Below, one piece after another: positions 6,639-23,655 of a stretch of DNA of 64,000 nucleotides (its first letter is position 1; every line of letters starts with the position of its first letter). This DNA is from Flavitalea plasmicola. GTDB lineage: Bacteria; Bacteroidota; Bacteroidia; Chitinophagales; Chitinophagaceae. The notes under the pieces were generated by a model that was not told the origin of the DNA, did no database searches, and was given only the letters and a program-made list of their open reading frames with translations. Location: contig NZ_JAUOTO010000004.1 in NCBI RefSeq assembly GCF_030546645.1, positions 806,001-870,000 of the forward strand. The letters run 5' to 3'. The translations under genes were made by a program, and so were the position numbers.

Positions 6639-6689
6639 ATGAAAATGACAATACACCATCACCACCATCATTTTTTACCACAGGGGTAG
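6639..6689 (+). CDS. hisL: his operon leader peptide (six consecutive His codons)
   Basis: A 16-codon ORF reading MKMTIHHHHHHFLPQG, with six adjacent histidine codons (CAC CAT CAC CAC CAT CAT, 6654-6671) and a TAG stop at 6687. It sits between the his promoter and an intrinsic terminator immediately upstream of hisG. A run of codons for the pathway end product in front of its own operon is the hallmark of translational attenuation. Ribosome stalling at low histidyl-tRNA is expected to favour the anti-terminator. The ATG is at most about 6 bases from the predicted transcription start, so translation probably begins without a Shine-Dalgarno site. The symbol is used by analogy with enteric hisL; homology is not claimed. 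Confidence 0.9.
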   Translation: MKMTIHHHHHHFLPQG

Positions 6690-6762
6690 GCCGGTGATGT
6701 TTTGTACTATATAAAACAAACTAATTAAAGGGGCTTACCGGAAGGTGAGCCCCTAATTTTTT
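6657..6762 (+). promoter_or_regulatory. his attenuator: alternative RNA hairpins before hisG
   Basis: Three mutually exclusive pairings can be read directly. Segment 1, inside the His codons (CATCACC, 6657-6663), is complementary to segment 2 (GGTGATG, 6693-6699). Segment 2 (CCGGTGA, 6691-6697) is also complementary over 7 pairs, one of them G-U, to segment 3 (TTACCGG, 6735-6741). Segment 3 is part of the terminator stem, 6730-6739 with 6744-6753. A ribosome stalled on the His codons would mask segment 1, free segment 2 to capture segment 3 and so prevent termination. The pairings are seen; the regulatory outcome follows the known mechanism of his attenuators. Confidence 0.85.
6730..6762 (+). 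terminator. his attenuator terminator
   Basis: A 10-bp stem (6730-6739 with 6744-6753, one G-U pair) closed by a GGAA tetraloop is followed by a T-rich tract TAATTTTTT at 6754-6762. It ends 14 bases before the hisG start codon, so it must act as a conditional terminator and not as the end of an upstream gene. Confidence 0.9.
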
Positions 6763-6776
6763 AACCAACTATTGGC

Positions 6777-7631
6777 ATGAAGCTAAAAATCGCCATTCAG
6801 AAATCGGGACGACTCTACGATGATTCCGTCAAGCTCCTGAAGGACTGCGGCATCGACCTGAAGAACGGAGTCAACAAGCTCAGGACCGAATCGGATAATT
6901 TCCCCATGGAGATCTATTTCCTGCGGGACGACGATATTCCCCAGTACGTGGAGGACGCAGTTGCGGACATCGGTATCGTAGGAGAGAATGTGCTGTATGA
7001 GAATTGTAAGCAAGTGGACATTGTGGAGCACCTGGGCTTCGGCAAATGCCGCCTGTCGGTGGCCGTAGGCAGGGGAGAACAGTATACGGATGTCACTTAT
7101 CTGCAGGGCAAAAGGATCGCCACGACCTATCCGACCCTTGTGCGTCAATTCCTGGCGAAGAACAAGGTGGAGGCGGATATCCATGAGATCAGCGGGTCTG
7201 TCGAGATCGCGCCCGGAATCGGGCTGGCCAATGCCATCGTCGACCTGGTCAGCAGCGGCAGCACGCTTTTCATGAACGGGTTGAAGGAAGTGGAGACCGT
7301 CCTGCAATCCCAGGCGGTGCTCGTCAGGAATAAGAACCTGAGCGATGAGCAACAGACGATCCTGGATAAGTTCCTCTTCCGCATACGTGCGGTGAAGAGG
7401 GCGAGAAATACGAAATACATCCTGTTGAACGCTCCCAACGACAAGCTGAAGGATATCATTGCGCTGCTGCCGGGCATGAAGAGTCCGACAGTGCTACCGC
7501 TGGCTGAAGCAGGCTGGAGCAGCGTGCACAGCGTGCTGAATGAAAATGATTTCTGGGATATCATTGAGCGGCTGAAGGATGCGGGCGCCCAGGGCATCCT
7601 GGTGGTTCCTATTGAGAAGATGATCATTTAA
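6777..7631 (+). CDS. hisG: ATP phosphoribosyltransferase, long form
   Basis: First enzyme of histidine synthesis: it condenses ATP and PRPP to phosphoribosyl-ATP in the cytoplasm. At 284 residues it is the long, homohexameric HisG form with a C-terminal ACT-like regulatory domain (about residues 210-284), so it needs no HisZ subunit and should be feedback-inhibited by histidine. Recognisable parts are the N-terminal KIAIQKSGRLYDDSVKLL, the middle EIAPGIGLANAIVDLVSSG, where the PRPP-binding loop lies, and the C-terminal segment PTVLPLAEAGWSSVHSV. It begins 14 bases after the attenuator and is followed 9 bases later by hisD. Confidence 0.97.
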   Translation: MKLKIAIQKSGRLYDDSVKLLKDCGIDLKNGVNKLRTESDNFPMEIYFLRDDDIPQYVEDAVADIGIVGENVLYENCKQVDIVEHLGFGKCRLSVAVGRGEQYTDVTYLQGKRIATTYPTLVRQFLAKNKVEADIHEISGSVEIAPGIGLANAIVDLVSSGSTLFMNGLKEVETVLQSQAVLVRNKNLSDEQQTILDKFLFRIRAVKRARNTKYILLNAPNDKLKDIIALLPGMKSPTVLPLAEAGWSSVHSVLNENDFWDIIERLKDAGAQGILVVPIEKMII

Positions 7632-7640
7632 TACATCGAT

Positions 7641-8930
7641 ATGCAATTGATTGACATTAGTTCGTATGATACGCTTTCCCCGGCGCAGCGGCGGGAATGG
7701 CTGTCGCGGCCCGTGCTGGATACTACGGCGTTGGAGCAAAAGGTGGCCGATATCCTTTCGGCTGTGAAGCGAGGCGGAGACACTGCCGTCAAGGCGTTCT
7801 CCCTGCAGTTCGACAAGGTATCGCCGGAGCATCTGGAGGTCGGCAATGAAGAGATGGAAGCTGCGGTGGGGGCGGTCGGAGAGGAGCTGCAGCTGGCTAT
7901 CCGGCAGGCGCTGCGTCATATCCAGACCTTTCATAATATCCAGCGGCAGCCGGTGGAGGCTGTGGAGACCATGCCGGGGGTGCAATGCTGGCGGAAGTCG
8001 GTGGCTATTGAAAAAGTTGGGCTTTATATACCGGGGGGGACTGCGCCGTTGTTCTCCACCTTGCTTATGCTGGGCATACCTGCCAAGCTGGCCGGGTGCC
8101 GGGAGATCGTATTGTGCTCGCCTCCTGACCCGCAGGGACGCCTGCATCCTGCCATCCTGTATGCCGCAAAGCTGGTGGGAGTGACGAAGATCTATAAGGC
8201 AGGGGGTGTGCAGGCTATTGCCGCCATGGCCTATGGTACGGAGACCATCCCGGCCGTTTATAAGATCTTCGGGCCGGGTAATCAATATGTCACCTGCGCC
8301 AAACAGCTGATCCAGAAGGATGGTGTTGCCATTGATATGCCGGCAGGTCCCAGCGAAGTAGCTGTTTATGCCGATGACAGCGCTCATCCCGGATTCGTGG
8401 CTGCCGACCTTCTGTCGCAGGCAGAACATGGTCCGGACAGTCAGGTGGTGCTGGCCTGCCCTTCGCGCCAGGTGGCGGAGCGGGTGTTGGAAGCCGTACA
8501 GCAGCAGGTGATCCGGCTGCCCCGCGCCGAAGTGGCTACAAAAGCTTTGGCCTTCAGCCGGGCCTTTATTACCAGGGATGCGAAACAGGCCATGGAGATC
8601 CTGAATGAATATGCACCCGAGCATTTGATCCTGGCCTGCGACAACGCCGCCGAGCTGGCTGAAAAGGTCGTTAATGCCGGTTCCGTCTTCATCGGGCACT
8701 TCTCTCCGGAAAGCGCGGGGGATTATGCCAGCGGCACCAACCATGTGCTGCCTACCAACGGCTATGCGAGGGCCTACAGTGGTGTGAGCCTGGACAGCTT
8801 TGTAAAGAAGATCACATTTCAACAACTCACGCAGGAAGGCATTCGGGGCATCGGCCCTGCTGTCATACAGATGGCCGAGGCCGAGGGCTTGCGGGCGCAT
8901 GCCGATGCCGTGAGGGTAAGGGTGTCTTAA
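7641..8930 (+). CDS. hisD: Histidinol dehydrogenase
   Basis: Catalyses the last two steps of the pathway, histidinol to histidinal to histidine, using NAD+ and a zinc ion. The 429-residue length is typical. Family motifs are present in order: EKVGLYIPGGTAPLFSTLLM, then GPGNQYVTCAKQL, then the block DMPAGPSEVAVYAD...LLSQAEHG containing zinc/active-site Gln and His, then EYAPEHLIL (catalytic Glu-His) and GDYASGTNHVLPT. It follows hisG by 9 bases and precedes hisC by 10, so it is transcribed in the same operon. Confidence 0.97.
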   Translation: MQLIDISSYDTLSPAQRREWLSRPVLDTTALEQKVADILSAVKRGGDTAVKAFSLQFDKVSPEHLEVGNEEMEAAVGAVGEELQLAIRQALRHIQTFHNIQRQPVEAVETMPGVQCWRKSVAIEKVGLYIPGGTAPLFSTLLMLGIPAKLAGCREIVLCSPPDPQGRLHPAILYAAKLVGVTKIYKAGGVQAIAAMAYGTETIPAVYKIFGPGNQYVTCAKQLIQKDGVAIDMPAGPSEVAVYADDSAHPGFVAADLLSQAEHGPDSQVVLACPSRQVAERVLEAVQQQVIRLPRAEVATKALAFSRAFITRDAKQAMEILNEYAPEHLILACDNAAELAEKVVNAGSVFIGHFSPESAGDYASGTNHVLPTNGYARAYSGVSLDSFVKKITFQQLTQEGIRGIGPAVIQMAEAEGLRAHADAVRVRVS

Positions 8931-8940
8931 ATCATATAGT

Positions 8941-9993
8941 ATGTTTCAACTGGACAAATTATTAAGGGACAATATCCGGCAGCTGGTGCCATACTCCTCT
9001 GCCAGGGATGAATTCAAAGGGGAGGCACAGGTCTTCCTGGACGCCAACGAGAATAGCCTGGGATCACCGCTGACCCGGTGGTATAACCGATATCCCGACC
9101 CGCTGCAATGGAAATTGAAGGAAGCGCTCAGCAAAGTCAAGGGCGTTGAGCCGAAGCACATCTTCCTGGGCAACGGCAGCGATGAATGCATCGACGTCCT
9201 CTATCGGGCTTTTTGTGTACCGGGCAAGGACAATATCATAATCAACCCGCCCACTTATGGCATGTATGAGGTCAGCGCTCATATCAATGACATAGAGGTC
9301 CGGAGGGCCACGCTGCTGGATGATTTCCAGCTGGACCTTGTACACCTGGAGAACCTCGTGGATGAGAACACAAAGATCATCTGGATCTGCAGTCCGAACA
9401 ACCCAACGGCCAATTCCATGGACCGGCAGGATGTAGAGACGGTCCTGAACAATTTCCCCGGGCTGGTGGTCGTAGATGAGGCGTATATCAATTTTTCCCG
9501 CCATCGCAGCTTTATCCAGGAGCTGGCGGATTACCCGAACCTGGTCGTATTGCAGACGATGAGCAAGGCATGGGGGCTGGCGGGGCTTCGCCTGGGCATG
9601 GCATTTGCCAGTGAAGCCATTATCGATGTCTATAACAAGGTGAAACCTCCTTATAATATCAATCAGGCGACCCAGGAGCTTGCCTTGAAGGCATTGGAAG
9701 AGACCGGGCAGGTGAATGATATGATAAGGGCATTGGTGAGCATGCGGGAACAGATGCACAATCAGCTGGCTGAGCTCCCCGTGGTCAGGAAGATCTATCC
9801 CAGTGATGCCAATTTCCTCCTGGTCAAGGTCGTTGATGCAAGAGCCGTTTATCAGTACCTGTTGGACCAGGGCATCGTCGTTCGCGACCGGAGCAAAGTA
9901 GCGCTATGCGAAGGGTGTTTACGGATCACTGTCGGCACGGAGTCGGAGAACCGGAAATTGCTGGAAGCGTTAAGCCAATATCAGATAACCTAA
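8941..9993 (+). CDS. hisC: Histidinol-phosphate aminotransferase
   Basis: PLP-dependent class I/II aminotransferase that converts imidazole acetol phosphate to histidinol phosphate. At 350 residues it has the family length. Visible landmarks are DANENSLGSP near the N-terminus, GNGSDECIDVL, the SPNNPTAN segment, VVDEAYINF and the PLP-lysine motif SKAWGLAGLRLGM with Lys209. The C-terminal CLRITVGTESEN contains the phosphate-binding Arg. It closes the first his block; the next gene is unrelated to histidine and begins after a 70-base gap. Confidence 0.96.
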   Translation: MFQLDKLLRDNIRQLVPYSSARDEFKGEAQVFLDANENSLGSPLTRWYNRYPDPLQWKLKEALSKVKGVEPKHIFLGNGSDECIDVLYRAFCVPGKDNIIINPPTYGMYEVSAHINDIEVRRATLLDDFQLDLVHLENLVDENTKIIWICSPNNPTANSMDRQDVETVLNNFPGLVVVDEAYINFSRHRSFIQELADYPNLVVLQTMSKAWGLAGLRLGMAFASEAIIDVYNKVKPPYNINQATQELALKALEETGQVNDMIRALVSMREQMHNQLAELPVVRKIYPSDANFLLVKVVDARAVYQYLLDQGIVVRDRSKVALCEGCLRITVGTESENRKLLEALSQYQIT

Positions 9994-10063
9994 GGTAAAA
10001 ATTAGTGATTGTGCGCTCGATGCATTCGCGTAAATTACATTCATTATTCAACAGTGTCATTCC

Positions 10064-11434
10064 ATGAAACAGCCAACTAAAAAATCACCAACGTCTGAGC
10101 GAACCAACCGTGGGTCTCGGACGTCATTTCCGCACAAGACCCTGCACCTTGCCATGGGGTTGTGTATGATGGGACTTTTCGCATGCGCGGGGAATTCGGA
10201 TAAAGCACCGGCGCCGGCAGCAGGATCGACACCCGCTGCGGGGGCAGAGATCCCCAAGGACACCAGCATCAAGCTGCCGTCCGGATTTTCTGCAAGTATC
10301 GTTGCGGAAGGCTTGGGTAAAGCGCGTCATATAGTAATTGCTCCCAACGGCGTGGTCTTCGTAAAGCTCGAGCGGTTGAAGGATGGGAAGGGCATCTATC
10401 GTCTCCAGGACACGAATGGCGACGGGAAGCCTGACCAGGTCACAGGTTTCGGGAAATTCGGTGGTACGGGCATCGCCATAAAGAAAGGCTATCTCTATGC
10501 GTCTTCCAACGAAGATGTATACAGATTTAAGCTGGACGATAACTTCAATGTCACCAATCCGGACAATCCGGAGAAGATCGTCACGGGCCTGATCGATCGT
10601 CACCAGCATGAGTCGAAGTCCATCGCCCTGGATAATGACGGAAACCTATATGTGAATATCGGCGCCTATTCGAATTCCTGCCAGCTGCAGGACAGAACCA
10701 AAGGCTCGCCCGGCAGGCAGCCATGTCCTATATTGGATTCGGCCGGTGGTATCTGGCAGTTCAAAGCCGACCAGCCCGGACAGACCTATGGCACGGGCGT
10801 ACGATATGCCACCGGGCTCCGCAATGTAGTGGGGCTGGACTGGAACACGGCAACCAACACTTTGTTCGTGATGCAGCATGGAAGGGATCAACTGCACGAT
10901 CTTTTCCCCGACCTGTATGATACCAAACAAAGCGCTGAGCTGCCTGCGGAATGCATGTACGAGCTGCATAAGGGTTCCAATTGCGGGTGGCCTTACATCT
11001 ATTATGATGAATTCCAGCATAAGAAGATCCTGGCGCCCGAATACGGTGGTGATAGTAAGAAGACTGGCGCCGAAGATGCCCAGGACCCTGTAGTGGCATT
11101 TCCCGGTCACCTTGCTCCCAATGGTCTTTTATTTTATACAGGCAACCAGTTCCCCGAGAAATACAAGAATGGGGCTTTCGTTGCTTTTCATGGTTCCTGG
11201 AACAGGGCGCCCGAGCCCCAGAAGGGCTATTTTGTCGCGTTTGTACCGTTCAGCAATGGCAAGCCCAGCGGTGAATGGGAGGTTTTTGCGGACAATTTCT
11301 CCGGGGGGCCTGATAAGACGGCTTCCGGCAGGGCGACTTACCGGCCTTGTGGTCTGGCACAGGGGCCTGATGGGTCCATTTATGTGACGGATGATTCAAA
11401 GGGGAATGTTTGGAAGATCAGCTATAAGAAATAA
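10064..11434 (+). CDS. Sorbosone dehydrogenase-like (PQQ-type) lipoprotein
   Basis: A 456-residue protein with the six-bladed propeller of the glucose/sorbosone dehydrogenase family. Early blades read PSGFSASIVAEGLGKARHIV and LQDTNGDGKPDQVTGFG; later ones give RYATGLRNVVGLDW, FPGHLAPNGLLFYTG and the closing GLAQGPDGSIYVTDDSKGNVW. A lipobox-like LFAC (Cys at about residue 41) predicts membrane anchoring, although the 40-residue leader is long. Such enzymes oxidise sugars or aldoses and pass electrons to a cytochrome; the cytochrome c gene 1 base downstream fits that pairing. The substrate cannot be read from sequence. It interrupts hisC and hisB. A weak upstream promoter (ATTG at 10008-10011, TAAATTAC at 10031-10038) may exist. 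Confidence 0.85.
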   Translation: MKQPTKKSPTSERTNRGSRTSFPHKTLHLAMGLCMMGLFACAGNSDKAPAPAAGSTPAAGAEIPKDTSIKLPSGFSASIVAEGLGKARHIVIAPNGVVFVKLERLKDGKGIYRLQDTNGDGKPDQVTGFGKFGGTGIAIKKGYLYASSNEDVYRFKLDDNFNVTNPDNPEKIVTGLIDRHQHESKSIALDNDGNLYVNIGAYSNSCQLQDRTKGSPGRQPCPILDSAGGIWQFKADQPGQTYGTGVRYATGLRNVVGLDWNTATNTLFVMQHGRDQLHDLFPDLYDTKQSAELPAECMYELHKGSNCGWPYIYYDEFQHKKILAPEYGGDSKKTGAEDAQDPVVAFPGHLAPNGLLFYTGNQFPEKYKNGAFVAFHGSWNRAPEPQKGYFVAFVPFSNGKPSGEWEVFADNFSGGPDKTASGRATYRPCGLAQGPDGSIYVTDDSKGNVWKISYKK

Positions 11435-11435
11435 T

Positions 11436-11870
11436 ATGAACAGACTGTTTGTTATGGCCAGTACAGCGTTGCTGGCCTTTTTATTGATGTCGCAGACACA
11501 GAAGCCTGCTGCCAAAGGAGGTGCTTTGGCGGCTTCGATCGCGAGGGGTAAGGTTGTATATGAGTCGACATGCCAGCCTTGCCACATGGCGGATGGAGGG
11601 GGAGCACCGAATATGAATCCGCCGTTGTCCAGGACGAAATGGGTACTGGGGGACAAGGTTAAGCTGGCGCAGATCGTGTTGAAAGGTTTGCCCGGTGGTC
11701 AGATCGAAATTGACGGGGATACTTTTCACAATCCGATGCCGGCTCAGGAGAGTGTGCTCTCAGATCAGCAGATAGCGGATGTGCTGACGTTTGTCCGGAA
11801 TAATTTTGGGAATAAGGCGAGTGCGGTGACGGTGGCGGAGGTGAAGGCAAGCAGGGGGAGGATGAAGTAG
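11436..11870 (+). CDS. Class I c-type cytochrome
   Basis: A 144-residue secreted cytochrome with an N-terminal signal/anchor (MASTALLAFLLMS) and one haem-binding CxxCH motif, CQPCH at residues 46-50. A later NPMPAQ supplies a plausible distal methionine, and ADVLTFVRNNF matches the C-terminal helix of this fold. The frame extends upstream to 11391, but the ATG at 11436, one base after the TAA of the dehydrogenase gene, gives the signal peptide and implies translational coupling. It is the likely electron acceptor of the sorbosone dehydrogenase-like protein, acting in the periplasm. Confidence 0.9.
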   Translation: MNRLFVMASTALLAFLLMSQTQKPAAKGGALAASIARGKVVYESTCQPCHMADGGGAPNMNPPLSRTKWVLGDKVKLAQIVLKGLPGGQIEIDGDTFHNPMPAQESVLSDQQIADVLTFVRNNFGNKASAVTVAEVKASRGRMK

Positions 11871-11888
11871 GGGTTAAATATTTTACCG

Positions 11889-11967: not shown

Positions 11968-13107
11968 ATGAAAAGGATCCTGTTCATAGACCGCGACGGT
12001 ACGCTGATCAAAGAAGCGCCGCCTACTTACCAGATCGACTCATTCGACAAGCTTGAATTCTATCCCTATATGTTCGAATACATGGGACGCATTGCCCGTG
12101 AAATGGATTATGAGCTCCTGATGGTTACCAACCAGGACGGCCTGGGATCAAAGAGCTTCCCTGAAGAAACTTTCTGGCACGTCCAGCAATTCGTCATGAA
12201 AAGCCTGGAAGGCGAAGGCATTCATTTCACCGACGTATATATCGACAAGAGCCTTGCAAAGGACAATGTCCCCACCCGCAAACCGGGTACAGGCATGCTG
12301 ACAAAATACATCGACAACCCGGAGTACGACCTGGAGAACTCATTTGTCATCGGGGACAGGATCACGGATGTGCAGCTGGCAAAGAACCTGGGCTGCAGGG
12401 CTATCTGGCTGAACAACGAACCGGGGCTGGGCGGCGGAGAGGTCAGTGACAATGCAAAAGCGCTGAACGAAGTAGTGGCCCTGGAGACAAAGGATTGGAG
12501 CAAGATCTATGAGTTCCTGAAACTGGGCCTGAGAAGAGTGATCCATGAGCGCAATACCAACGAGACGCAGATAAAGATCGAATTGAACGTGGACGGCAGC
12601 GGTAAGGCTGCTATCGTCACAGGCCTGGGGTTCTTCGATCACATGTTGGAGCAGATAGCCCGGCATGGAAAGATGGACCTCACCATCCGCAGCAATGGCG
12701 ATCTGCACATCGACGAGCATCACACGATCGAAGATACGGGCATTGCGCTGGGAGAGGCGTTTGCCCAGGCGCTGGCGGACAAAAGGGGGATGGAGAGATA
12801 TGGGTTTGCCCTGCCGATGGATGAGGCTGACGCAAAAGTGCTGATCGACTTCGGGGGCAGGAGCTGGATCGTCTGGAATGCGGAGTTCAAAAGGGAGCAC
12901 ATCGGGGAAATGCCGACGGAAATGTTCTTCCACTTTTTCAAATCCTTCTCGGATGCAGCGAAATGTAACCTGAATATAGAATGCCGGGGAGAGAATGAGC
13001 ATCATAAGATCGAAGCCATTTTCAAGGCCTTTGCAAAAGCGATACGGATGGCGGTGAAAAGGGATCCGCTCAGCAACTACCTGCCCAGCACAAAAGGGGT
13101 ATTGTGA
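11968..13107 (+). CDS. hisB: Bifunctional histidinol-phosphatase / imidazoleglycerol-phosphate dehydratase
   Basis: A 379-residue fusion of two pathway enzymes. The N-terminal HAD phosphatase (about 1-165) has the nucleophile motif FIDRDGTL with Asp8 and Asp10, and a C-terminal HAD acidic motif [12 protein letters not shown]. The C-terminal IGP dehydratase (about 180-379) shows [23 protein letters not shown], the metal-binding [14 protein letters not shown] and [24 protein letters not shown]. It carries out steps 6 and 8 of histidine synthesis. It is separated from hisC by the dehydrogenase/cytochrome pair and followed after 73 bases by the trp leader. Confidence 0.97.
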
Positions 13108-13141: not shown

Positions 13142-13173
13142 TTTGGAGAATTCAACTCTCTGGCTCATATTTG
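13142..13173 (+). promoter_or_regulatory. Promoter of the trp operon
   Basis: TTTG at 13142-13145 and CATATTTG at 13166-13173 (7 of 8 matches to TAnnTTTG by fixed positions, C for T at the first) are separated by 20 bases. The -7 box ends 7 bases before the leader-peptide ATG at 13181, closely mirroring the his promoter arrangement. Confidence 0.65.
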
Positions 13174-13180
13174 CCGTGCA

Positions 13181-13243
13181 ATGACAAAACAATTCATCAA
13201 TAAAGTGTGGTGGTGGCATACAAACTCCAAGCGGGGCAAGTAA
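13181..13243 (+). CDS. trpL: trp operon leader peptide (three consecutive Trp codons)
   Basis: A 20-codon ORF with TGG TGG TGG at codons 10-12 (13208-13216) and a TAA stop at 13241. It lies between a promoter and an intrinsic terminator directly in front of trpE. Three adjacent codons for the rarest amino acid, placed 5' of the anthranilate synthase gene, identify it as an attenuation leader. The symbol is by analogy of function. Confidence 0.9.
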   Translation: MTKQFINKVWWWHTNSKRGK

Positions 13244-13299
13244 TGCTATTACTACATGTATTACCATATTGGGCCCCGGTATACCGGGGTTTTTTATTT
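13207..13299 (+). promoter_or_regulatory. trp attenuator: alternative RNA hairpins before trpE
   Basis: The Trp-codon segment 13207-13219 pairs without mismatch (four G-U pairs) with 13243-13255, just past the leader stop. The loop of that hairpin contains CGGGGC (13232-13237), complementary to GCCCCG (13273-13278), which overlaps the 5' arm of the terminator. A ribosome stalled on Trp codons would leave CGGGGC exposed and block the terminator. A ribosome reaching the stop at 13241 would cover it and allow termination. Complementarities are seen; the switching model is inference from the enteric trp paradigm. Confidence 0.8.
13274..13299 (+). terminator. trp attenuator terminator
   Basis: A perfect 16-base palindrome (13274-13289, six GC pairs around a TATA core) is followed by TTTTTT from 13290 and a further T-rich stretch to 13299. 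It ends about 60 bases before the trpE ATG and after the leader stop codon. Confidence 0.9.
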
Positions 13300-13359: not shown

Positions 13360-14781
13360 ATGAAGAAAATAGAAATAAAAACCAACTGCCGCAGACTGCT
13401 TTCGGACATCTTTACGCCCGTGGGTATCTACCTGCGGCTGCGGGACCGGTTTCGGGATACCATCCTGTTGGAGAGCACGGATTATCACGTGGCGGAGAAC
13501 AGTTATTCCTTTATCTGCATCAATGCCATTGCCGGCATCGAGATCTCCGATACCCGGAACATTGAATTCAAGCTGCCAGGGCAGCCGCCTGAAAAGAAGC
13601 TTCTGACCAACTTGTCGGATACGCCCGGCCTCTTATGGGAGTTCATGCAGCGCTTTGACACAAAACCCGCCACCGAGAAGGCAGTGAGAGCCGTGCAAGG
13701 ACTTTTTGGCTATACGACCTTCGACGCTGTACAATTCTTTGATTCCATAAAACTGGATCATCACAACGATGCCGCGCGGATACCTTTGATGCGTTACCGG
13801 CTCTATCAATATGTGATCGCCATCAATCATTTCAAGGACGAGCTATACATCTGCGAGAATCAGATCGCGGGCCTGGAATCGGAAGTCGCCCTTGTCGAGT
13901 CGCTTATCAAGAGCAAGGATGTTCCCGTATACCCATTCCGGATAAAAGGAGAGGAGACCTCCAATATGAAGGATGAGGAATATATCGAGATCGTAAAGAA
14001 GGGCATCCGCAGCTGCCACAGGGGTGACGTTTTCCAGATCGTGCTGAGCCGCCGTTTCCAGCAGGGTTTTACGGGCGACGAATTCAATGTGTACAGGGCG
14101 CTGCGCAGCATCAATCCTTCACCCTACCTGTTCTTCTTCGATTATGGGGATTATAGGCTGATGGGCTCTTCTCCTGAGTCACAGCTGATCCTGCAGAACG
14201 GAGAGGCCATTGTACATCCGATAGCGGGGACGTTTAAAAGGAGCGGCGACGATGCGACGGATGAGTTGATGGCGGATAAATTACTGAAAGATGCAAAAGA
14301 GAATGCGGAGCATGTCATGCTGGTGGACCTCGCGCGCAATGACCTTAGCCGGAACTGCGATGAGGTGACGGTGGCGCATTACCGGGAGGTGCAATATTAC
14401 TCGCATGTGATCCACCTGGTCAGTGAAGTGCGGGGAAAATTGAGGGATGGCTATAATCCTTTCGAGCTGTTGGCCACTACTTTTCCTGCGGGCACGCTTA
14501 GCGGGGCCCCGAAATTCAAGGCCATGGAGCTGATAGATGAATATGAACCCACGCCCCGCAGCTATTATGGAGGGTGTATCGGGTTCATGGGCTTTGACGG
14601 CAGCTGCAATCATGCCATTATGATCCGGAGCCTGCTGAGCATGAACAATACCATGACCTACCAGGCGGGGGCCGGGGTGGTTGCCGCGAGCCAGCCGGAA
14701 AGCGAATTGCAGGAAGTGAACAATAAGCTGGGCGCTTTGAAAAAGGCCATTTTGTTCGCAGAAGACATTAGTCATCAATAA
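13360..14781 (+). CDS. trpE: Anthranilate synthase component I
   Basis: Chorismate-utilising enzyme that forms anthranilate with the TrpG glutaminase. The 473-residue length is typical of stand-alone TrpE. The N-terminal ILLESTDYH holds the LLES motif associated with tryptophan feedback binding. The catalytic domain shows RGDVFQIVLSRRF, MGSSPESQL, HPIAGTFKRSG, HVMLVDLARNDLSR, GTLSGAPKFKAMELIDEYEP and YYGGCIGF. It is the first structural gene behind the trp attenuator and is followed 18 bases later by trpG. Confidence 0.97.
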   Translation: MKKIEIKTNCRRLLSDIFTPVGIYLRLRDRFRDTILLESTDYHVAENSYSFICINAIAGIEISDTRNIEFKLPGQPPEKKLLTNLSDTPGLLWEFMQRFDTKPATEKAVRAVQGLFGYTTFDAVQFFDSIKLDHHNDAARIPLMRYRLYQYVIAINHFKDELYICENQIAGLESEVALVESLIKSKDVPVYPFRIKGEETSNMKDEEYIEIVKKGIRSCHRGDVFQIVLSRRFQQGFTGDEFNVYRALRSINPSPYLFFFDYGDYRLMGSSPESQLILQNGEAIVHPIAGTFKRSGDDATDELMADKLLKDAKENAEHVMLVDLARNDLSRNCDEVTVAHYREVQYYSHVIHLVSEVRGKLRDGYNPFELLATTFPAGTLSGAPKFKAMELIDEYEPTPRSYYGGCIGFMGFDGSCNHAIMIRSLLSMNNTMTYQAGAGVVAASQPESELQEVNNKLGALKKAILFAEDISHQ

Positions 14782-15371: not shown

Positions 15372-16364
15372 ATGAAAAAGATCTTACAATATTTATTCGA
15401 GCACAAGACCCTTTCCAGGCAACAGGCCAGGGAAGTACTGACCAATATAGCCGGGGGAAGCTACAATGACAGCGAGATCACCGCTTTTATTACGGTGTTC
15501 CTCATGCGCAGCATTACCATCGACGAGCTGCAGGGCTTCCGGGACGCTTTGCTGGACCTTTGCGTACGGGTGGATCTGGACGGGCATGACACCATCGACA
15601 TCGTGGGTACGGGCGGCGACGGGAAGAACACTTTCAATATATCCACGCTGGCCTGCTTTATCGTGGCCGGCACTGGTCAGAAAGTGGCGAAACATGGTAA
15701 TTACGGAGCTTCCAGCATCAGCGGCGCTTCCAATGTCATGGAGCAGCTGGGATATAAGTTCAAGAATGACTCCGCAAGACTGAAGCAGGAGGTGGAGGCG
15801 GCGGGCATCTGTTTCCTGCATGCGCCCATGTTCCACCCGGCACTGAAGACGGTAGGACCTATCCGTAAGAACCTGGGCGTCCGCACTTTTTTCAATATGT
15901 TGGGCCCCATGGTGAACCCAGCAGGCCCCCGTTTTCAGCTGGTAGGCGTCTATAACCTGGAAATGGCCAGGATCTATAATTATCTGCTACAGCAGACGGA
16001 AGGCTATTACACCATCATCCATGGACTGGATGGATACGATGAGATCTCTCTCACGGGTGATACCAAGGTCATCACCCACCTGGGAGAAAAGATCATGACG
16101 CCGGAAGAATTGGGCAAACGAATGGTAAATGCTACCGATATTTACGGGGGGAATTCCATAGAGGAGGCGGCTAAACTTTTCACCAGGATCCTGAAGGTAG
16201 AAGGCACGTGGGCCCAGAATGCGGTGGTGCTAGCTAATGCGGCCATGGCATTATATTCCACCGGGGGGTTCGGCAAGTACGACGATGCTTATGCCGCGGC
16301 AGTGGATAGCCTGGAAAGCGGGAAGGCCTATGATTCATTGAAAAAATTAATTGCATTACAATAG
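15372..16364 (+). CDS. trpD: Anthranilate phosphoribosyltransferase
   Basis: Transfers phosphoribose from PRPP to anthranilate. At 330 residues it has the normal length. The PRPP-binding signature DIVGTGGDGKNTFNISTLAC is intact, followed by KVAKHGNYGASSISGASNVM, then FMPHP-region equivalent HAPMFHPALKTVGPIRKNLG and FNMLGPMVNPAGP. It begins 2 bases after the trpG stop, so translational coupling is likely. It competes with HisG for PRPP, which is relevant to its place within the his cluster. Confidence 0.97.
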   Translation: MKKILQYLFEHKTLSRQQAREVLTNIAGGSYNDSEITAFITVFLMRSITIDELQGFRDALLDLCVRVDLDGHDTIDIVGTGGDGKNTFNISTLACFIVAGTGQKVAKHGNYGASSISGASNVMEQLGYKFKNDSARLKQEVEAAGICFLHAPMFHPALKTVGPIRKNLGVRTFFNMLGPMVNPAGPRFQLVGVYNLEMARIYNYLLQQTEGYYTIIHGLDGYDEISLTGDTKVITHLGEKIMTPEELGKRMVNATDIYGGNSIEEAAKLFTRILKVEGTWAQNAVVLANAAMALYSTGGFGKYDDAYAAAVDSLESGKAYDSLKKLIALQ

Positions 16365-16366: not shown

Positions 16367-17152
16367 ATGAATATCCTGGATAAAATAATTCAGCACAAAC
16401 GGACGGAAGTGGCCAGGCGGCAGGAGGAAGTTTCGGTGGAAATGCTTAGGGGAAGGCCTTTGTTTGGCCGCAAAACGCTGTCTTTGAAAGAGGTTTTGAA
16501 GGATGCGCGCAAAACAGGCATTATCGCTGAATTTAAAAGAAGGTCTCCCTCGAAAGGGGTGATAAATGACCAGGTGGATGTGGAGGATGTGACGAAAAAG
16601 TATACGGCAGCCGGCGCCTCCTGCTTATCCGTGCTGACCGACGAAACTTTTTTTGGAGGGGGCGACGAAGATCTGCGGAAAGCCCGTGTCAATGAGATCC
16701 CCATCCTGCGAAAGGATTTTATCATCGATGAATACCAGATCACGGAGGCGAAGGCCATCGGTGCGGACGTGATCCTGCTGATAGCGGCTTGTCTGACGCC
16801 GGAAGCCGTGAAAAGACTGGCTGTATTTGCCAGGGGATTGGGATTGGAGGTGTTATTAGAGATCCACAACGAGGCAGAGCTGGAGCATATCTGTGAAGAG
16901 ACGGAGCTGGTGGGGGTGAACAACCGCGACCTGAAGACCTTCACGGTGGATATACAGCGCAGCATCGATCTGAGCATGAAGATACCCAAGGGAAAGACGC
17001 TGATCGCAGAGAGCGGTATCAGCAAGATCGAGACGATCCTCCATATGAAGAACGCCGGGTTCACCGGATTTCTCATCGGGGAGAATTTTATGAAAGAAAA
17101 AGACCCAGGCGCCGCTTTCGGTGAATTTGTAAGCGCGCTGAAGGGAAACTAA
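16367..17152 (+). CDS. trpC: Indole-3-glycerol-phosphate synthase
   Basis: TIM-barrel enzyme that closes the indole ring from the rearranged carboxyphenylamino-ribulose phosphate. The 261 residues make a stand-alone TrpC, not fused to TrpF. Motifs are IIAEFKRRSPSKGVI (catalytic Lys and substrate phosphate contacts), CLSVLTDETFFGG, LRKDFIIDEYQI, GVNNRDLKTF and IAESGI. It starts 2 bases after trpD ends. A 65-base gap follows before trpF. Confidence 0.97.
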   Translation: MNILDKIIQHKRTEVARRQEEVSVEMLRGRPLFGRKTLSLKEVLKDARKTGIIAEFKRRSPSKGVINDQVDVEDVTKKYTAAGASCLSVLTDETFFGGGDEDLRKARVNEIPILRKDFIIDEYQITEAKAIGADVILLIAACLTPEAVKRLAVFARGLGLEVLLEIHNEAELEHICEETELVGVNNRDLKTFTVDIQRSIDLSMKIPKGKTLIAESGISKIETILHMKNAGFTGFLIGENFMKEKDPGAAFGEFVSALKGN

Positions 17153-17217: not shown

Positions 17218-17859
17218 ATGAGAGTAAAAGTCTGCGGGATGACCGAGATCGACCAGGTTAAGCAATTGGACGCCATGGGCGTGGATTTTGCGGGGTTTAT
17301 CTTCTACCCCAAGTCACCCCGGTATGTAGTCCGTCATCTGACGGGAGAGCAGGTGAAAAAGGCAAAGCTGCGGCTTGGTAAGGTAGGTGTCTTTGTCAAT
17401 GCCACCTATGACGAGGTCATGAAGCAGGTGGATAGTTATGGCCTGGACATGGTGCAACTGCACGGGGATGAGACCCCTCGTTTTTGCGAGCAGCTGTCGA
17501 ACTATATTACGGTGATCAAAGTATTCCGGCTGGGTGAGGATGACCCTATCGATTGGCTGATACGTCCCTACCAGGATTCCTGCGATATGTTCCTTTTCGA
17601 TACGGAAGGCGTGGGATATGGGGGTACGGGCAAGAAGTTCAACTGGAGCACGTTGAAATCCGCCCACATTGACAAGCTATTCTTTTTAAGCGGCGGCATT
17701 GAGCCCGGAGACGCGGAAAAGCTGAAGGTATTCGCCAGGGAGCCTGTTGCCAGGAAAATGTTCTCTATCGACATCAACAGCAAGTTTGAGACAAGCGCCG
17801 GCGTGAAGGACCTGAAGAAGATAAGGACATTACTTGACAGCCTGAAGAACAATGGCTAA
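17218..17859 (+). CDS. trpF: Phosphoribosylanthranilate isomerase
   Basis: TIM-barrel isomerase acting between TrpD and TrpC. The N-terminal motif [12 protein letters not shown] holds the catalytic Cys, and a catalytic Asp is expected in [32 protein letters not shown] is the phosphate-binding loop. The 213 residues match the family. As a separate trpF gene is present, the nearby HisA need not be a dual-function PriA enzyme. It is followed 11 bases later by trpB. Confidence 0.95.
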
Positions 17860-17870
17860 AAAATATTATT

Positions 17871-19063
<1,193 letters not shown>

Positions 19064-19067
<4 letters not shown>

Positions 19068-19837
19068 GCAGAATAACAGACCTTTTCAGAAAGAAGAACC
19101 AGCGCGTGCTGAACGTCTATTGTACGGCCGGTTATCCCCGGCTCAACAGCACAATGGAAGTGATGAAGGCCCTGCAGGACAATGGGGCCGATATGATCGA
19201 GCTGGGCATGCCCTACAGCGATCCGCTGGCGGACGGCCCGGTGATACAGGCCAGCGGCAGCAAGGCATTGGAGAACGGCATGTCCATCTCCACCCTGTTC
19301 GGACAGCTAAAGGAGCTCCGGACGACCATCCGGCTGCCTGTGCTGCTGATGGGCTATATGAACCCCGTCCTGCAGTACGGCTTCGAAAAATTCTGTGCAG
19401 CGGCATCGGCGGTAGGGATCGACGGTCTTATCCTGCCCGACCTCCCGATCTATGAGTTCGAAACCGAGTATGGCCCGGTGATCAAAAAGTATGGGCTGGA
19501 TTTTGTATTTCTCATTACGCCCGAGACTTTCCCCGAGCGGATAGCTAAAGTAGACTCCCTGAGCTCCGGGTTCCTCTATGCCGTATCCTCCTCTTCCACT
19601 ACGGGAAAGGACAAGGATTTGAATGGGCAGCGGGCATACTTCGAAAAGCTCCATGAGATGCGACTGAGGAACCCTGTGCTGGTGGGATTCGGGATCAAGG
19701 ATAAAAATACTTTTGAGACCACTTGTAAATATACCAATGGGGCCATCATCGGAACCGCCTATATCAAAGCATTGGAAAATGCCAAAGACATCAATGCTGC
19801 TACGGCGGCCTTTTTAAAACCTATCCTGGGGGCATGA
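19064..19837 (+). CDS. trpA: Tryptophan synthase alpha chain
   Basis: Cleaves indole-3-glycerol phosphate to indole, which is channelled to TrpB. From the ATG at 19064 the protein is 257 residues. Catalytic residues are Glu46 in [15 protein letters not shown] and Asp57 at the end of that motif. [22 protein letters not shown] and [10 protein letters not shown] match the family. A longer in-frame start at 18998 would lie inside trpB and is rejected in favour of the ATGA overlap. The stop is followed after one base by hisH, joining the trp block directly to the second his block. Confidence 0.96.
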
Positions 19838-19838
19838 T

Positions 19839-20429
19839 ATGAACACCGTCATCATCAAATACAATGCAGGTAACATTCAATCGGTGCTGTATGCGCTGGA
19901 GCGGATCGGGCAAGAGGCTGTCGTGACGGATGATCCGGACCAGATCCGCAGTGCCGGTAAGGTCATTTTCCCGGGGGTGGGAGAAGCCAGCACGGCCATG
20001 GAATATCTCAAAGGCAGGGGGCTGGACAAGCTGTTAAAAGAGTTGAATCAGCCTGTGCTGGGTATCTGCCTGGGCATGCAGCTCATGTGCAGCTACAGTG
20101 AGGAGAACGATACGGACTGCCTGGGCATCTTCGAAGAAAAGGTGAAAAAGTTCTCCGGGGGAGAGGGTCTGAAGGTTCCGCAAATCGGCTGGAACAATAT
20201 CTATGACCTGAAGACCCCGCTGTTCGATGGACTGAAGGAGAATAGCTTTTGCTATTTCGTGCACGGCTATTATGCCGACCTGGGCAGGCATACCATTGCG
20301 ACGACCAGCTATGGCTTGCCGTATAGCTCAGGACTGCACAGAGACAATTTTTATGGCGTGCAGTTCCACCCGGAGAAATCGGCGGCGGTGGGGGAACAAA
20401 TATTAAAGAATTTTTTAGAAAATATTTAA
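19839..20429 (+). CDS. hisH: Imidazole glycerol phosphate synthase, glutaminase subunit
   Basis: Class I glutamine amidotransferase subunit that delivers ammonia to HisF. Length 196. The nucleophile is Cys77 in VLGICLGMQLMC; the His/Glu pair is in GVQFHPEKS near the C-terminus. FPGVGEASTAM provides the oxyanion region. It begins one base after the trpA stop codon, with no terminator or promoter between. Its expression must therefore come from the trp transcript unless an internal promoter lies within trpA. Confidence 0.96.
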   Translation: MNTVIIKYNAGNIQSVLYALERIGQEAVVTDDPDQIRSAGKVIFPGVGEASTAMEYLKGRGLDKLLKELNQPVLGICLGMQLMCSYSEENDTDCLGIFEEKVKKFSGGEGLKVPQIGWNNIYDLKTPLFDGLKENSFCYFVHGYYADLGRHTIATTSYGLPYSSGLHRDNFYGVQFHPEKSAAVGEQILKNFLENI

Positions 20430-20440
20430 GCGATAAGGAA

Positions 20441-21172
20441 GTGGAGATCATACCGGCAATAGACATCATCGATGGCAAGTGCGTTCGTCTCACACAGGGG
20501 GACTATGCACAGAAAAAAGTATATAACGAACATCCCCTGGAAGTGGCCAGGGCCTTCGAGGATGCCGGTCTGCAGCGGCTGCACCTGGTGGACCTGGATG
20601 GCGCGAAGGCAGGCGCCGTTAGGAACTGGAAGGTGCTGGAAGCACTGGCTGGCAAGACAGGACTGGTCATCGACTTTGGAGGCGGTATAAAGACGGCAGC
20701 CGATGTGGATATTATTTTTAACTCGGGTGCTGCGCTGGCTACTATCGGAAGTCTTGCGGTAAAGGAGCCGGAAGTTTTTGTGGGGTTTCTGGAGCAATAC
20801 GGCGCAGAACGTTTTTTCCTGGGAGCCGATGTAAAAAATGAAAAGATCGCCGTGGGGGGGTGGCTGGAAACCACTGATAAATGGGTCTATGATTTCATTG
20901 AAGACTATTCAGGAAAGGGCATCCGGCAGGTGTTTTGCACGGATGTGAGCAAGGATGGCCTGTTGCAGGGGCCTTCGCTGGACCTGTATAAGAACATCGT
21001 CGGCAAGTTCCCTCAGCTGCATTTCATCGCCAGCGGGGGCGTCAGCGAGCTGGATGATGTTCACAGGCTGGAGGAGGCCGGGTGCAAGGGGGTAATCATC
21101 GGGAAGGCGATCTATGAAGGGCGCATTACGTTGCAGGAACTTTCCAGGGTCGCATTAACAACTAAAAAATAA
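20441..21172 (+). CDS. hisA: ProFAR isomerase (phosphoribosylformimino-AICAR-P isomerase)
   Basis: TIM-barrel isomerase, step 4 of the histidine pathway. 243 residues from a GTG start at 20441, chosen because the conserved N-terminus EIIPAIDIIDGKCVRLTQGD follows it at once. Catalytic Asp8 is in that motif, and the second acidic residue is in VFCTDVSKDG. DFGGGIKTAADV and IASGGVSELDD are the phosphate-binding loops. It lies 11 bases after hisH and 3 bases before hisF. Confidence 0.96.
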   Translation: MEIIPAIDIIDGKCVRLTQGDYAQKKVYNEHPLEVARAFEDAGLQRLHLVDLDGAKAGAVRNWKVLEALAGKTGLVIDFGGGIKTAADVDIIFNSGAALATIGSLAVKEPEVFVGFLEQYGAERFFLGADVKNEKIAVGGWLETTDKWVYDFIEDYSGKGIRQVFCTDVSKDGLLQGPSLDLYKNIVGKFPQLHFIASGGVSELDDVHRLEEAGCKGVIIGKAIYEGRITLQELSRVALTTKK

Positions 21173-21175
21173 CCC

Positions 21176-21934
21176 GTGCTGACAAAAAGGATCATACCCT
21201 GTCTCGATATCAAAGACGGCCGGACCGTCAAAGGGGTGAATTTTGAAAATATCCGGGATGCAGGCGACCCCGTGGAGCTGGGCGCGCTGTATGCGCAGCA
21301 GGGTGCTGATGAGCTGGTATTCCTGGACATCACCGCCACCAATGAAAAACGAAAGACGCTGAGAGAGCTTGTGAACCGGATCGCGCACCATATCAATATT
21401 CCGTTTACGGTAGGGGGAGGGATCAGCAGTGTGGAGGATGTAAGCCTGCTGCTGCAAAACGGTGCGGATAAGATCTCCGTAAATACGTCCGCCTACCGCC
21501 GGCCGGAGCTTATCAACGAGCTGGCCAGGGAGTTCGGCAGCCAATGCGTGGTATTGGCCATCGATACCAAAAAGGAAGCAGATGGGCGGTGGTATGTATA
21601 CCTCAATGGGGGGAGGGTGAAGACGGATATGCTTTGTGCGGACTGGGCCCGGCAGGGAGTAGACAGGGGAGCTGGAGAGATCCTGCTGACATCTATGAAC
21701 AATGACGGCACCAAAAAAGGTTTTGCGCTGGATATTACCCGGGAGCTGGCGGGCGCGCTGCCTGTTCCAGTGATCGCTTCCGGCGGAGGGGGAACAATGG
21801 AGCATTTTGTGGATGTCCTGGGCGAAGGAAAGGCGGACGCGGCCCTGGCTGCCAGCATCTTCCATTTTAAGGAAATCACAATTCCGGAATTAAAAGGATA
21901 TTTGCAGGATCAACATATTGCAGTAAGATATTAG
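21176..21934 (+). CDS. hisF: Imidazole glycerol phosphate synthase, cyclase subunit
   Basis: Cyclase half of the HisH-HisF complex, producing IGP and AICAR. 252 residues from a GTG start at 21176. Asp11 is in [17 protein letters not shown]; the second catalytic Asp is in [35 protein letters not shown] and [12 protein letters not shown] are the usual barrel motifs. It has a GTG start like hisA, with the CCC trinucleotide as spacer. Confidence 0.97.
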
Positions 21935-21950
21935 CGATAAGATACCAGAT

Positions 21951-22550
21951 ATGAACGTAGATTTTGGAAAATACGGGGATGGGCTGGTTCCGGCCATTAT
22001 ACAGGACGCCACCACGCAAAAAGTGCTGATGCTGGGATTCATGAACCAGGAAGCGCTGGATAAGACTGAAAAGGAAGGGAAGGTCACCTTTTTCAGCCGG
22101 AGCAAGGGGCGGCTATGGACCAAAGGGGAGGAGAGCGGCAATTACCTCCTTCTGAAAAGCCTCGCCCTGGACTGTGATCGTGATACTTTACTGATCAAGG
22201 CGGAACCGCTGGGGCCTGTATGCCATACGGGAGCTGATACCTGCTGGGACGAGAAGAACCATAACGAGGATTTTCTCACCTGTCTGGAGGAGATCATACA
22301 GCAGCGCCGTCAGCAGGCCGATCCGTCCGGATCTTATGTGGCAAGCCTTTTTCATAAAGGGATCAACAAAATAGCCCAGAAAGTGGGAGAGGAGGCGGTA
22401 GAGCTGGTGATCGAAGCAAAAGATCAGGATGAAGGTCTGTTCCTGAACGAGGCGGCCGACCTGCTTTTTCACTATTTGATCTTATTAAACGCAAAAGGTT
22501 ATAATTTGCAGGACGTGACGGATATCTTAAAAGAAAGACATAAAAAATAA
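21951..22550 (+). CDS. hisIE: Bifunctional phosphoribosyl-AMP cyclohydrolase / phosphoribosyl-ATP pyrophosphatase
   Basis: A fusion of the second and third pathway steps (199 residues). The N-terminal HisI domain (about 1-105) contains TTQKVLMLGFMNQEAL, FFSRSKGRLWTKGEESGN and the metal-binding CHTGADTCW. The C-terminal HisE domain (about 110-199) contains GINKIAQKVGEEAVELVIEA and NEAADLLFHYLILL. With it the complete set of histidine enzymes is present in the window. The next gene begins 7 bases downstream. Confidence 0.97.
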   Translation: MNVDFGKYGDGLVPAIIQDATTQKVLMLGFMNQEALDKTEKEGKVTFFSRSKGRLWTKGEESGNYLLLKSLALDCDRDTLLIKAEPLGPVCHTGADTCWDEKNHNEDFLTCLEEIIQQRRQQADPSGSYVASLFHKGINKIAQKVGEEAVELVIEAKDQDEGLFLNEAADLLFHYLILLNAKGYNLQDVTDILKERHKK

Positions 22551-22557
22551 TTATTAT

Positions 22558-23655
22558 ATGAAGAGGTTTTTTGGAATATTGGGGCTGTTGCCGCTGCTCA
22601 CTTTCGGCCAGGAAAAGAAGGATGCTCAATTCATCATCACGGGTGATGTCAAAGGATTGGCGGAAAATGAGCTGGTGTTCCTTACGGATGTATCCAACCC
22701 CGCCGATACGCTGTCACAGGGACATGCAAAAGGCGGCCATTTTGTGCTGAACGGGCATGTTCAGGAGCCTAATCTGTTCGAGCTGAACCTGGGCAGCGCT
22801 AAGAATAAGGCGCCCCTCTTCATGGGGAATGACAATATCAGTGTTACCGGGGCAATCGAAGATCTGAAGGGGCTGGTGACGAAGGGGTCTGCTTCCAACG
22901 ATGATTTTCAACAGTTCCAGAAGGAGTTCAATCCTTATTTCACCCGGATCAACGGCGTCATGCAGCTGGCTAATTCGCCGGCAGGTGCGAAAAGCAAGGA
23001 TTCCCTCTTCAAAGTATATAAGAGCGTCGCGGATTCGACGCTGATGCAGCTGGACCATTTTATTGCCGCTAAAAAGTCGTCCTATGTTTCGCCGTTTGTG
23101 TTGGTAGTGTTGAACCAGCTTTCGGAGGATGTGACAGCGCAGGAAAAAAGGCTTACTTCCCTTTCTCCTGAGGTGCAGAAAGGATACTATGGGCAATACC
23201 TGAAAAAGCAGATCGACGAAGCGAAGATCGGGGCGGTGGGGTCCGAGGCGATCGATTTCTCTCAAAGCGATACTGCCGGCAAGGCTGTGACCCTTTCCTC
23301 GTTTAAGGGAAAGTATGTGCTGGTGGATTTCTGGGCCAGCTGGTGCGGACCTTGCCGGATGGAAAACCCCAATGTAGTCAGTACGTATAAAAAATTCAAG
23401 GATAAGAATTTCACGGTATTAGGCGTGTCCCTGGACAAGGCAAAGGAACCCTGGGTCAAGGCCATTAAGGACGATGGCCTGTCCTGGACGCAGGTGAGCG
23501 ATCTGAAGTACTGGTACAATGAGGTGGCCGTGAAATATCACATTCAAAGCATTCCCCAGAATTACCTCATAGATCCCAGCGGCAAAATAGTCGCCCGTAA
23601 CCTTCGTGGTCCGGACTTGCAGGCCAAGCTCTGCGAGCTGTTGGGATGTAATTAG
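22558..23655 (+). CDS. TlpA-like thioredoxin-fold protein with N-terminal DUF4369-type domain
   Basis: A 365-residue exported protein. After a short signal peptide (ending TFGQ), residues about 25-110 form a DUF4369-like beta domain (IITGDVKGLAENELVFL, then GHFVLNGHV). A helical middle follows, and a thioredoxin domain from about 230 carries the redox motif WCGPC in VDFWASWCGPCRMENPN. Bacteroidota proteins of this architecture are periplasmic disulfide or cytochrome-maturation factors. The function here is not fixed. It starts 7 bases after hisIE, so it probably lies on the his/trp transcript even though it has no role in amino-acid synthesis; a haem or thiol link to the cytochrome c gene of the cluster is speculative. 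Confidence 0.85.
   Translation: MKRFFGILGLLPLLTFGQEKKDAQFIITGDVKGLAENELVFLTDVSNPADTLSQGHAKGGHFVLNGHVQEPNLFELNLGSAKNKAPLFMGNDNISVTGAIEDLKGLVTKGSASNDDFQQFQKEFNPYFTRINGVMQLANSPAGAKSKDSLFKVYKSVADSTLMQLDHFIAAKKSSYVSPFVLVVLNQLSEDVTAQEKRLTSLSPEVQKGYYGQYLKKQIDEAKIGAVGSEAIDFSQSDTAGKAVTLSSFKGKYVLVDFWASWCGPCRMENPNVVSTYKKFKDKNFTVLGVSLDKAKEPWVKAIKDDGLSWTQVSDLKYWYNEVAVKYHIQSIPQNYLIDPSGKIVARNLRGPDLQAKLCELLGCN

What the first reader, a model, noticed from the sequence alone, without database searches (positions are those of the whole stretch)
6639..23655. Complete trp operon nested inside the his operon, making hisH-A-F-IE potentially tryptophan-controlled
Order seen: hisG-D-C, two unrelated genes, hisB, trp leader and terminator, trpE-G-D-C-F-B-A, then hisH-A-F-IE. 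trpA and hisH are one base apart with no visible terminator or promoter. If there is no internal promoter, the second half of histidine synthesis depends on read-through of the Trp attenuator, so two pathways that both consume PRPP (HisG, TrpD) are tied in one transcript with two amino-acid sensors in series. This arrangement is not the standard contiguous his operon I know for Bacteroidota.
Basis: partly seen in the sequence, partly recalled or inferred. Interest (0 to 1): 0.85.

Follow-up and report, generated by a model that had tools for sequence, protein, structure and literature searches.

The report
Tryptophan-histidine hybrid operon with dual-codon attenuator
In many bacteria of one environmental family, half of the histidine genes sit at the end of the tryptophan operon behind its tryptophan-sensing switch, and that switch carries a histidine codon next to its tryptophan codons that is kept far more faithfully when the histidine genes are attached, which suggests that one switch reads two amino acids.

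Summary
In detail: hisGDC-[2 genes]-hisB-trpL-trpEGDCFBA-hisHAFIE, with trpA and hisH one base apart. It is not unique: of 134 sampled genomes of the same family, 130 were informative and 91 have hisH downstream of trp. The layout is in print for two species (Del Duca 2021). What changes the reading is the regulation. The trp leader has its own recurrent Bacteroidota-type promoter motif, found before hisH in only 4% of linked loci (shuffled 2%). The predicted units are therefore P-hisL-hisGDC..B and P-trpL-trpEGDCFBA-hisHAFIE, rather than one transcript with two sensors in series. The trp leader reads WWWH: a His codon directly follows the Trp codons, at about the last codon where a stalled ribosome would leave the antiterminator arm free. 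It is kept in 108 of 112 leaders with attached hisH and in 20 of 37 without; its loss rate is about 27-fold lower when attached (p about 1e-5). I propose a bivalent Trp/His attenuator. Against it: the codon's third base lies in an RNA stem that shows compensatory changes, His codons also occur in unlinked leaders (common in one other family), and no expression was measured.

The parts
6599..6629 (+). predicted his promoter: TTTG, 19 nt, TAATTTTG
   Evidence: motif match; motif consensus recalled
6639..6689 (+). his leader peptide MKMTIHHHHHHFLPQG, no Trp codon
   Evidence: sequence; similar H-rich leaders before hisG in relatives
6729..6754 (+). terminator-like hairpin of the his leader, followed by T run
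6777..7631 (+). hisG
   Evidence: NCBIfam
7641..8930 (+). hisD
   Evidence: NCBIfam
8941..9993 (+). hisC
   Evidence: NCBIfam
10064..11434 (+). alien gene 1: sorbosone-dehydrogenase/PVC-heme-protein-like
   Evidence: weak NCBIfam match below cut-off; conserved place
11436..11870 (+). alien gene 2: c-type cytochrome
   Evidence: weak NCBIfam match below cut-off; conserved place; start codon not established
11968..13107 (+). hisB (bifunctional)
   Evidence: NCBIfam
13142..13173 (+). predicted trp promoter: TTTG, 20 nt, CATATTTG (first base off the TAnnTTTG consensus)
13181..13243 (+). trp leader peptide MTKQFINKVWWWHTNSKRGK
13208..13216 (+). three Trp codons
13217..13219 (+). His codon CAT that follows the Trp codons
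   Evidence: conservation:
13232..13237 (+). antiterminator arm CGGGGC (within codons R18-G19)
   Evidence: duplex with the terminator 5' arm
13271..13292 (+). trp attenuator terminator hairpin; its GCCCCG (13273-13278) can pair with 13232-13237
13360..14781 (+). trpE
   Evidence: best hit trpE, below equivalog cut-off
14800..15369 (+). trpG
15372..16364 (+). trpD
16367..17152 (+). trpC
17218..17859 (+). trpF
   Evidence: best hit trpF, below cut-off
17871..19067 (+). trpB
19064..19837 (+). trpA, overlaps trpB stop
19839..20429 (+). hisH, one base after trpA
20441..21172 (+). hisA
21176..21934 (+). hisF
21951..22550 (+). hisIE
22558..23655 (+). TlpA/ResA-like protein that also follows trpA directly where hisHAFIE is absent

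Best explanation
A hybrid operon, trpL-trpEGDCFBA-hisHAFIE, is transcribed from its own promoter just upstream of the trp leader and governed by a ribosome-mediated attenuator. When Trp is short the ribosome stalls on the Trp codons, the arm CGGGGC stays free, pairs with GCCCCG of the terminator and transcription runs on into trp and hisHAFIE. The next codon is His; a ribosome starved for His would stall there with its leading edge at about 13229-13230, still short of the arm at 13232, so the same antiterminator should form. The leader would thus read Trp and His, and hisHAFIE could be raised on His starvation together with hisGDC, which has its own six-His leader. Shown by sequence: gene order, leaders, terminator, antiterminator complementarity, promoter-motif distribution, conservation of the His codon. 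Inferred: promoter and attenuator activity, co-transcription, and the His response. Mechanism recalled from E. coli: ribosome footprint, and relief of trp termination by Arg starvation through the Arg codon that follows the Trp codons.
For: Promoter motif before trpE in 54% of 112 and before hisG in 11 of 19 linked loci, before hisH in 4% of 113, shuffled 2-4%; -7 element ends 5-8 nt before the leader ATG in 99 of 147. Terminators in 146 of 149 leaders examined; antiterminator duplex of -7 kcal/mol or better in 100 of 105 linked leaders, in 97 of these 100 starting 10-15 nt from the first base of the His codon, 68 of 100 at 13-15 nt. His codon: 108 of 112 linked, 20 of 37 unlinked leaders, Fisher 5e-9 without tree correction (4 linked leaders read by eye). 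Loss rate 2.47 unlinked against 0.092 linked, LRT p 1e-5; family tips only p 2.5e-5; without a deep clade that may never have been linked p 3.7e-4. Parsimony: 7-9 losses in 6.3-6.6 units of unlinked branch length, 2 in 23.0-23.6 linked. Two linked leaders (L162, L173) have shrunk to one Trp codon yet keep the His codon after it. Deep linked branches keep His while the next residues vary. Outside the family, leaders read directly: His in 5 of 6 linked, 7 of 34 unlinked, Fisher 0.006.
Against: No expression data. Only one His codon, against six in the his leader. The third base of the His codon is paired in 95 of 100 linked leaders with covariation (CAT-A 83, CAC-G 9, CAT-G 3), and the 4 linked Gln leaders (2 events) keep a CAA-T pair, so RNA structure alone may hold this codon. 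Other leader positions are also better kept when linked: Asn two codons on 7-fold (p 2e-4), tail length p 0.02, Thr p 0.04, so part of the signal is general decay of unlinked leaders. In family f36 His is in 16 of 22 linked and in at least 17 of 35 unlinked leaders, Fisher 0.10. One linked outgroup (L226) has no His. CTMC tests of this kind can be inflated by few events.
Confidence: 0.52

Rival explanations
1. RNA-only: a plain Trp attenuator. The codon CAY is kept because its bases belong to the stem that the Trp codons form with the stretch just after the leader stop codon; hisHAFIE is Trp-controlled and any His response is incidental.
For: Third base paired in 95 of 100 linked leaders with compensatory pairs; linked Gln leaders keep the pair by CAA-T, 4 of 4; Y to R costs a median 1.75 kcal/mol in linked and in unlinked leaders; WWWH also in unlinked leaders, at least 17 of 35 in f36.
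Against: The same stem is present in unlinked leaders with the same cost, yet unlinked lineages changed CAY to a purine 17-fold more often (p 6e-4) and in 9 of 10 purine-ended unlinked leaders the pair is simply lost. RNA alone does not say why attachment of hisH should matter. Even if right, stalling at His should still free the arm.
Confidence: 0.3
2. One reading: one long transcript from the his promoter, with His and Trp attenuators in series and hisHAFIE dependent on both.
For: Same strand, no strong terminator scored between hisB and the trp leader; short gaps.
Against: Own promoter motif before the trp leader; 29 of 70 linked loci have no hisB upstream; gaps of 1-3 kb between hisB and trpE in many nested loci.
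Confidence: 0.1
3. hisHAFIE has its own weak internal promoter within trpB-trpA and is largely uncoupled from the attenuator.
For: Internal promoters exist in the his and trp operons of enterobacteria (recalled); the motif occurs upstream of trpB in 10% of 113 linked loci against 1% shuffled.
Against: None in the window before hisH and only 4% of 113 family-wide. Motif scans miss degenerate promoters.
Confidence: 0.08

Closest known systems
trp genes inside the his operon of Thermoflavifilum thermophilum and Filimonas lacunae (Del Duca et al. 2021, PMC8305728)
   Same: Same interruption of the his order by trp genes; short intergenic gaps noted by the authors
   Different: They report two species and no regulation in the sections read (3.2.6, 3.2.7; a term search of the text found no 'leader'). 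Here: family-wide survey, own promoter, attenuator, His codon
E. coli trp attenuator (trpL, recalled)
   Same: Leader peptide with tandem Trp codons, terminator and antiterminator
   Different: Genes of a second amino acid lie downstream; the codon after the Trp codons is His where E. coli has Arg; no match to Rfam leader families; the leader ATG lies within a few nt of the predicted start site
Multivalent attenuators: thr (Thr/Ile) and ilv (Leu/Val/Ile) operons of enterobacteria (recalled)
   Same: One leader with codons for more than one amino acid
   Different: Those amino acids share pathways; Trp and His share only PRPP use and, here, an operon
Bacillus subtilis aro supraoperon with hisC downstream of trp (recalled)
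   Same: A his gene within a trp transcription unit
   Different: hisC there also serves aromatic transamination, and control is by TRAP protein rather than a leader peptide

Membership tests
ribosome-mediated trp attenuator | short leader ORF with tandem Trp codons before trpE | tested here: met
ribosome-mediated trp attenuator | intrinsic terminator between leader ORF and trpE | tested here: met
ribosome-mediated trp attenuator | alternative antiterminator pairing whose arm is covered when the ribosome reaches the stop codon | tested here: met
   complementarity and distance only
ribosome-mediated trp attenuator | expression rises on Trp starvation | not testable with these tools
   needs an experiment
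Rfam amino-acid leader families | covariance-model match at gathering score | tested here: not met
   no match in the window
bivalent (multi-amino-acid) attenuator | leader codons for two amino acids whose biosynthetic genes lie downstream | tested here: met
   three Trp codons and one His codon; trp and hisHAFIE downstream
bivalent (multi-amino-acid) attenuator | second codon kept by selection for sensing | tested here: inconclusive
   strong association with attached hisH but RNA pairing at the same base and weak signal in f36
bivalent (multi-amino-acid) attenuator | derepression on starvation for either amino acid | not testable with these tools
   needs an experiment
trp-in-his hybrid operon (Del Duca 2021) | trp genes between hisB and hisH on one strand with short gaps | tested here: met

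The most novel reading that the evidence does not exclude
A dedicated bivalent Trp/His attenuator: after the trp operon became fused to hisHAFIE, the leader kept a His codon at the last position where a stall still frees the antiterminator, so that one RNA switch serves two unrelated amino-acid pathways, and the codon decays once hisHAFIE leaves.
Probability: 0.42. Interest if true: 0.75.

Novelty: new variant of a known kind. Interest (0 to 1): 0.6.

Why it matters
If true, operon fusion between unrelated pathways was followed by rewiring of an existing attenuator through a single codon, with a natural series of gains and losses in one family that makes the idea directly testable. It also shows a conserved case in which half a pathway is placed under another amino acid's switch, and it warns that metabolic models of these bacteria should not treat his genes as one His-controlled unit.

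Tried and rejected
Rfam search of the window gave nothing at gathering score. A sigma-70 scan found promoter-like sites at the shuffled rate (19 against 17.6), so I used the Bacteroidota motif (consensus recalled). I at first took the His codon as a clean mark of his linkage; one search showed it in at least 17 of 35 unlinked leaders of family f36, and searches showed RNA pairing at its third base, so the claim was lowered. In some searches the outgroup L226 was coded as unlinked; one search showed trpA-hisH there and repeats the all-tip test with this corrected (p 1e-5). In one search one of the unlinked losses (L232) lies outside the family. Paper searches for a Trp/His attenuator or a trp attenuator of this family (listings only) gave no report of one beyond Del Duca; most subscription journals are not held, and the E. 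coli Arg-codon precedent was not found there and is recalled.

Rows dropped. Family survey: 139 of 195 genomes had a TrpB match; 134 stretches were fetched, leaving out the window's own genome and four with partial matches or a match at a contig end. Leaders: of 214 loci, 40 had no usable trpE upstream and 21 were dropped because their last 150 bases upstream of trpE were identical to those of another locus, leaving 153 plus the window; L038 was dropped because the trpE hit picked was remote from the trp operon; 4 leaders of unknown linkage are not in the 112 and 37 (L047, first flagged for its short contig, was counted as unlinked because its trpA is followed by the TlpA-like gene). Class and order survey: 60 loci, 18 without a readable leader, 3 of unknown linkage (L217, L219, L223) left out of the 34.
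Full report
The window lies at 806001-870000 of contig 14 of an 8.7-Mb genome. Its closest named relatives by TrpA are uncultured Chitinophagaceae (87%, L002) and Puia dinghuensis (75%, L007).

Observation. All gene calls hold. hisG-D-C are followed by two alien genes, hisB, the trp leader, trpE-G-D-C-F-B-A and hisH-A-F-IE, then a TlpA/ResA-like gene. The trp genes occur once: the only strong TrpB match in the genome is this one.

How common is it? I searched 195 genomes of the family with TrpB (139 matched), fetched about 20 kb around trpB from 134 (shorter at contig ends) and mapped the genes. Of 130 informative loci, 91 have hisH downstream of trp, 89 of them within 300 nt of the trpA match end; 42 are nested with hisB upstream; 27 show hisGDC, hisB, trp and hisHAFI in one stretch. 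Among 70 linked loci with at least 9.5 kb upstream, 29 have no hisB there: hisHAFIE has stayed with trp after the rest of his left. Among the loci without hisH that have a recognised gene after trpA, the TlpA-like gene is that next gene in 35 of 36, so most unlinked cases look like loss of hisHAFIE from a linked ancestor; hisH is elsewhere in 42 of 45 such genomes searched, though two of those best hits are only 41% identical and may be paralogues. Outside the family, nesting is seen in L233 (another family), hisB-trpE without trpA-hisH in L222, and trpA-hisH without hisB in L226. Del Duca et al. 2021 (PMC8305728; abstract, passages and sections 3.2.6-3.2.7 seen) describe the interruption in two species and suggest one operon.

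Promoters. The motif TTTG-N17-22-[TC]AnnT[TC]TG is present before hisG in 11 of 19 linked loci and before trpE in 54% of 112, but before hisH in 4% of 113 and before hisB in 4% of 52; mono-shuffled controls give 1-4%. The highest other value is 10% before trpB. The strict consensus TAnnTTTG is rare before trpE (4%) and commoner before hisG (47%). With a looser pattern the -7 element ends 5-8 nt before the leader ATG in 99 of 147 leaders, so the leader peptide would start within a few bases of the transcript end.

Attenuator. A terminator was found in 146 of 149 leaders examined (a few picks, such as L106, look wrong). The G-rich stretch in the last codons of the leader pairs with the terminator's 5' arm at -7 kcal/mol or better in 100 of 105 linked and 29 of 41 other leaders. 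In the window the arm is 13232-13237 and the His codon starts at 13217. With the usual E. coli footprint (recalled; edge 12-13 nt from the first base of the A-site codon) a stall at His leaves the arm free, and a stall one codon later begins to cover it. Stem prediction also shows the Trp-His codons paired with the bases just after the stop codon.

The His codon. After the Trp run the next residue is His in 108 of 112 leaders with attached hisH (89 CAT and 15 CAC among the 104 found by script, plus 4 read by eye; the 4 exceptions are CAA, Gln) and in 20 of 37 without. On a tree of concatenated Trp proteins (171 tips, 2121 columns) the loss rate is 2.47 unlinked against 0.092 linked, p 1e-5; family tips only, p 2.5e-5; leaving out a deep clade that may never have been linked, p 3.7e-4. 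Controls at other leader features: Thr at the next codon 3-fold (p 0.04), Asn 7-fold (p 2e-4), Ser/Leu 4-fold (p 0.06), third Trp 3-fold (p 0.28), tail of at least six residues 13-fold (p 0.02). The His codon has the largest ratio (28-fold in the same call) and, among the residues tested, the lowest loss rate in linked operons (0.09, against 0.21 for the third Trp and 0.39-0.69 for the others), but it is not alone. Third-base change from pyrimidine to purine in CAN codons is 17-fold more frequent when unlinked (p 6e-4).

RNA structure as a confounder. In 100 linked His leaders the third base is paired in 95: CAT-A 83, CAC-G 9, CAT-G 3; changing it to a purine costs a median 1.75 kcal/mol, and swapping the pyrimidines costs a median 2.1. 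The four linked Gln leaders, two events, keep a CAA-T pair, which is true compensation. In unlinked leaders the cost is the same, yet 9 of 10 purine-ended codons have lost the pair. So the stem matters, and I cannot separate codon from stem by sequence alone.

Other families. In directly read leaders outside the family His follows the Trp run in 5 of 6 linked and 7 of 34 unlinked. In f36, where linkage was judged only from positions of trpE and hisH on one contig and strand (7.1-11.6 kb apart; the DNA between was not read), His is in 16 of 22 linked (4 other residues, 2 without a leader found) and in at least 17 of 35 unlinked (only the exact three-Trp-His pattern was sought there), Fisher 0.10. 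This is the main result against a strict link.

Verdict. The hybrid operon with its own promoter and Trp attenuator is well supported by sequence; dual Trp/His sensing is the reading I favour, at about even odds. It would solve the problem that nesting creates: without it, a His-starved, Trp-replete cell could raise hisGDC through its own six-His leader but not hisHAFIE.

Noticed in passing
6622-6689 and 13166-13243: Both leader peptides start within about 7-9 nt of the predicted -7 element, so the leader ORFs may be translated from nearly leaderless transcripts; the spacing recurs in the family.
   Followed up: partly
10064-11870: A sorbosone-dehydrogenase-like gene and a c-type cytochrome sit between hisC and hisB; both were recognised with hisB upstream of trp in 22 of the 134 family loci.
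   Followed up: partly
22558-23655: A TlpA/ResA-like gene follows hisIE here and follows trpA directly in 35 of 36 loci that lack hisH and have a recognised next gene, so it marks the old end of the hybrid operon.
   Followed up: partly
L162 and L173, upstream of trpE: Linked trp leaders reduced to a single Trp codon that is still followed by His.
   Followed up: partly
L222 and L226: Relatives outside the family with half-linkages: hisDCB before trpE without hisH after (L222), and trpA-hisH-hisA-hisG-hisD (L226), which bear on how the fusion arose.
   Followed up: no
4631-6421, minus strand: Divergent aminopeptidase-like gene with a weak type IX secretion sorting-domain match, just below its cut-off.
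   Followed up: no
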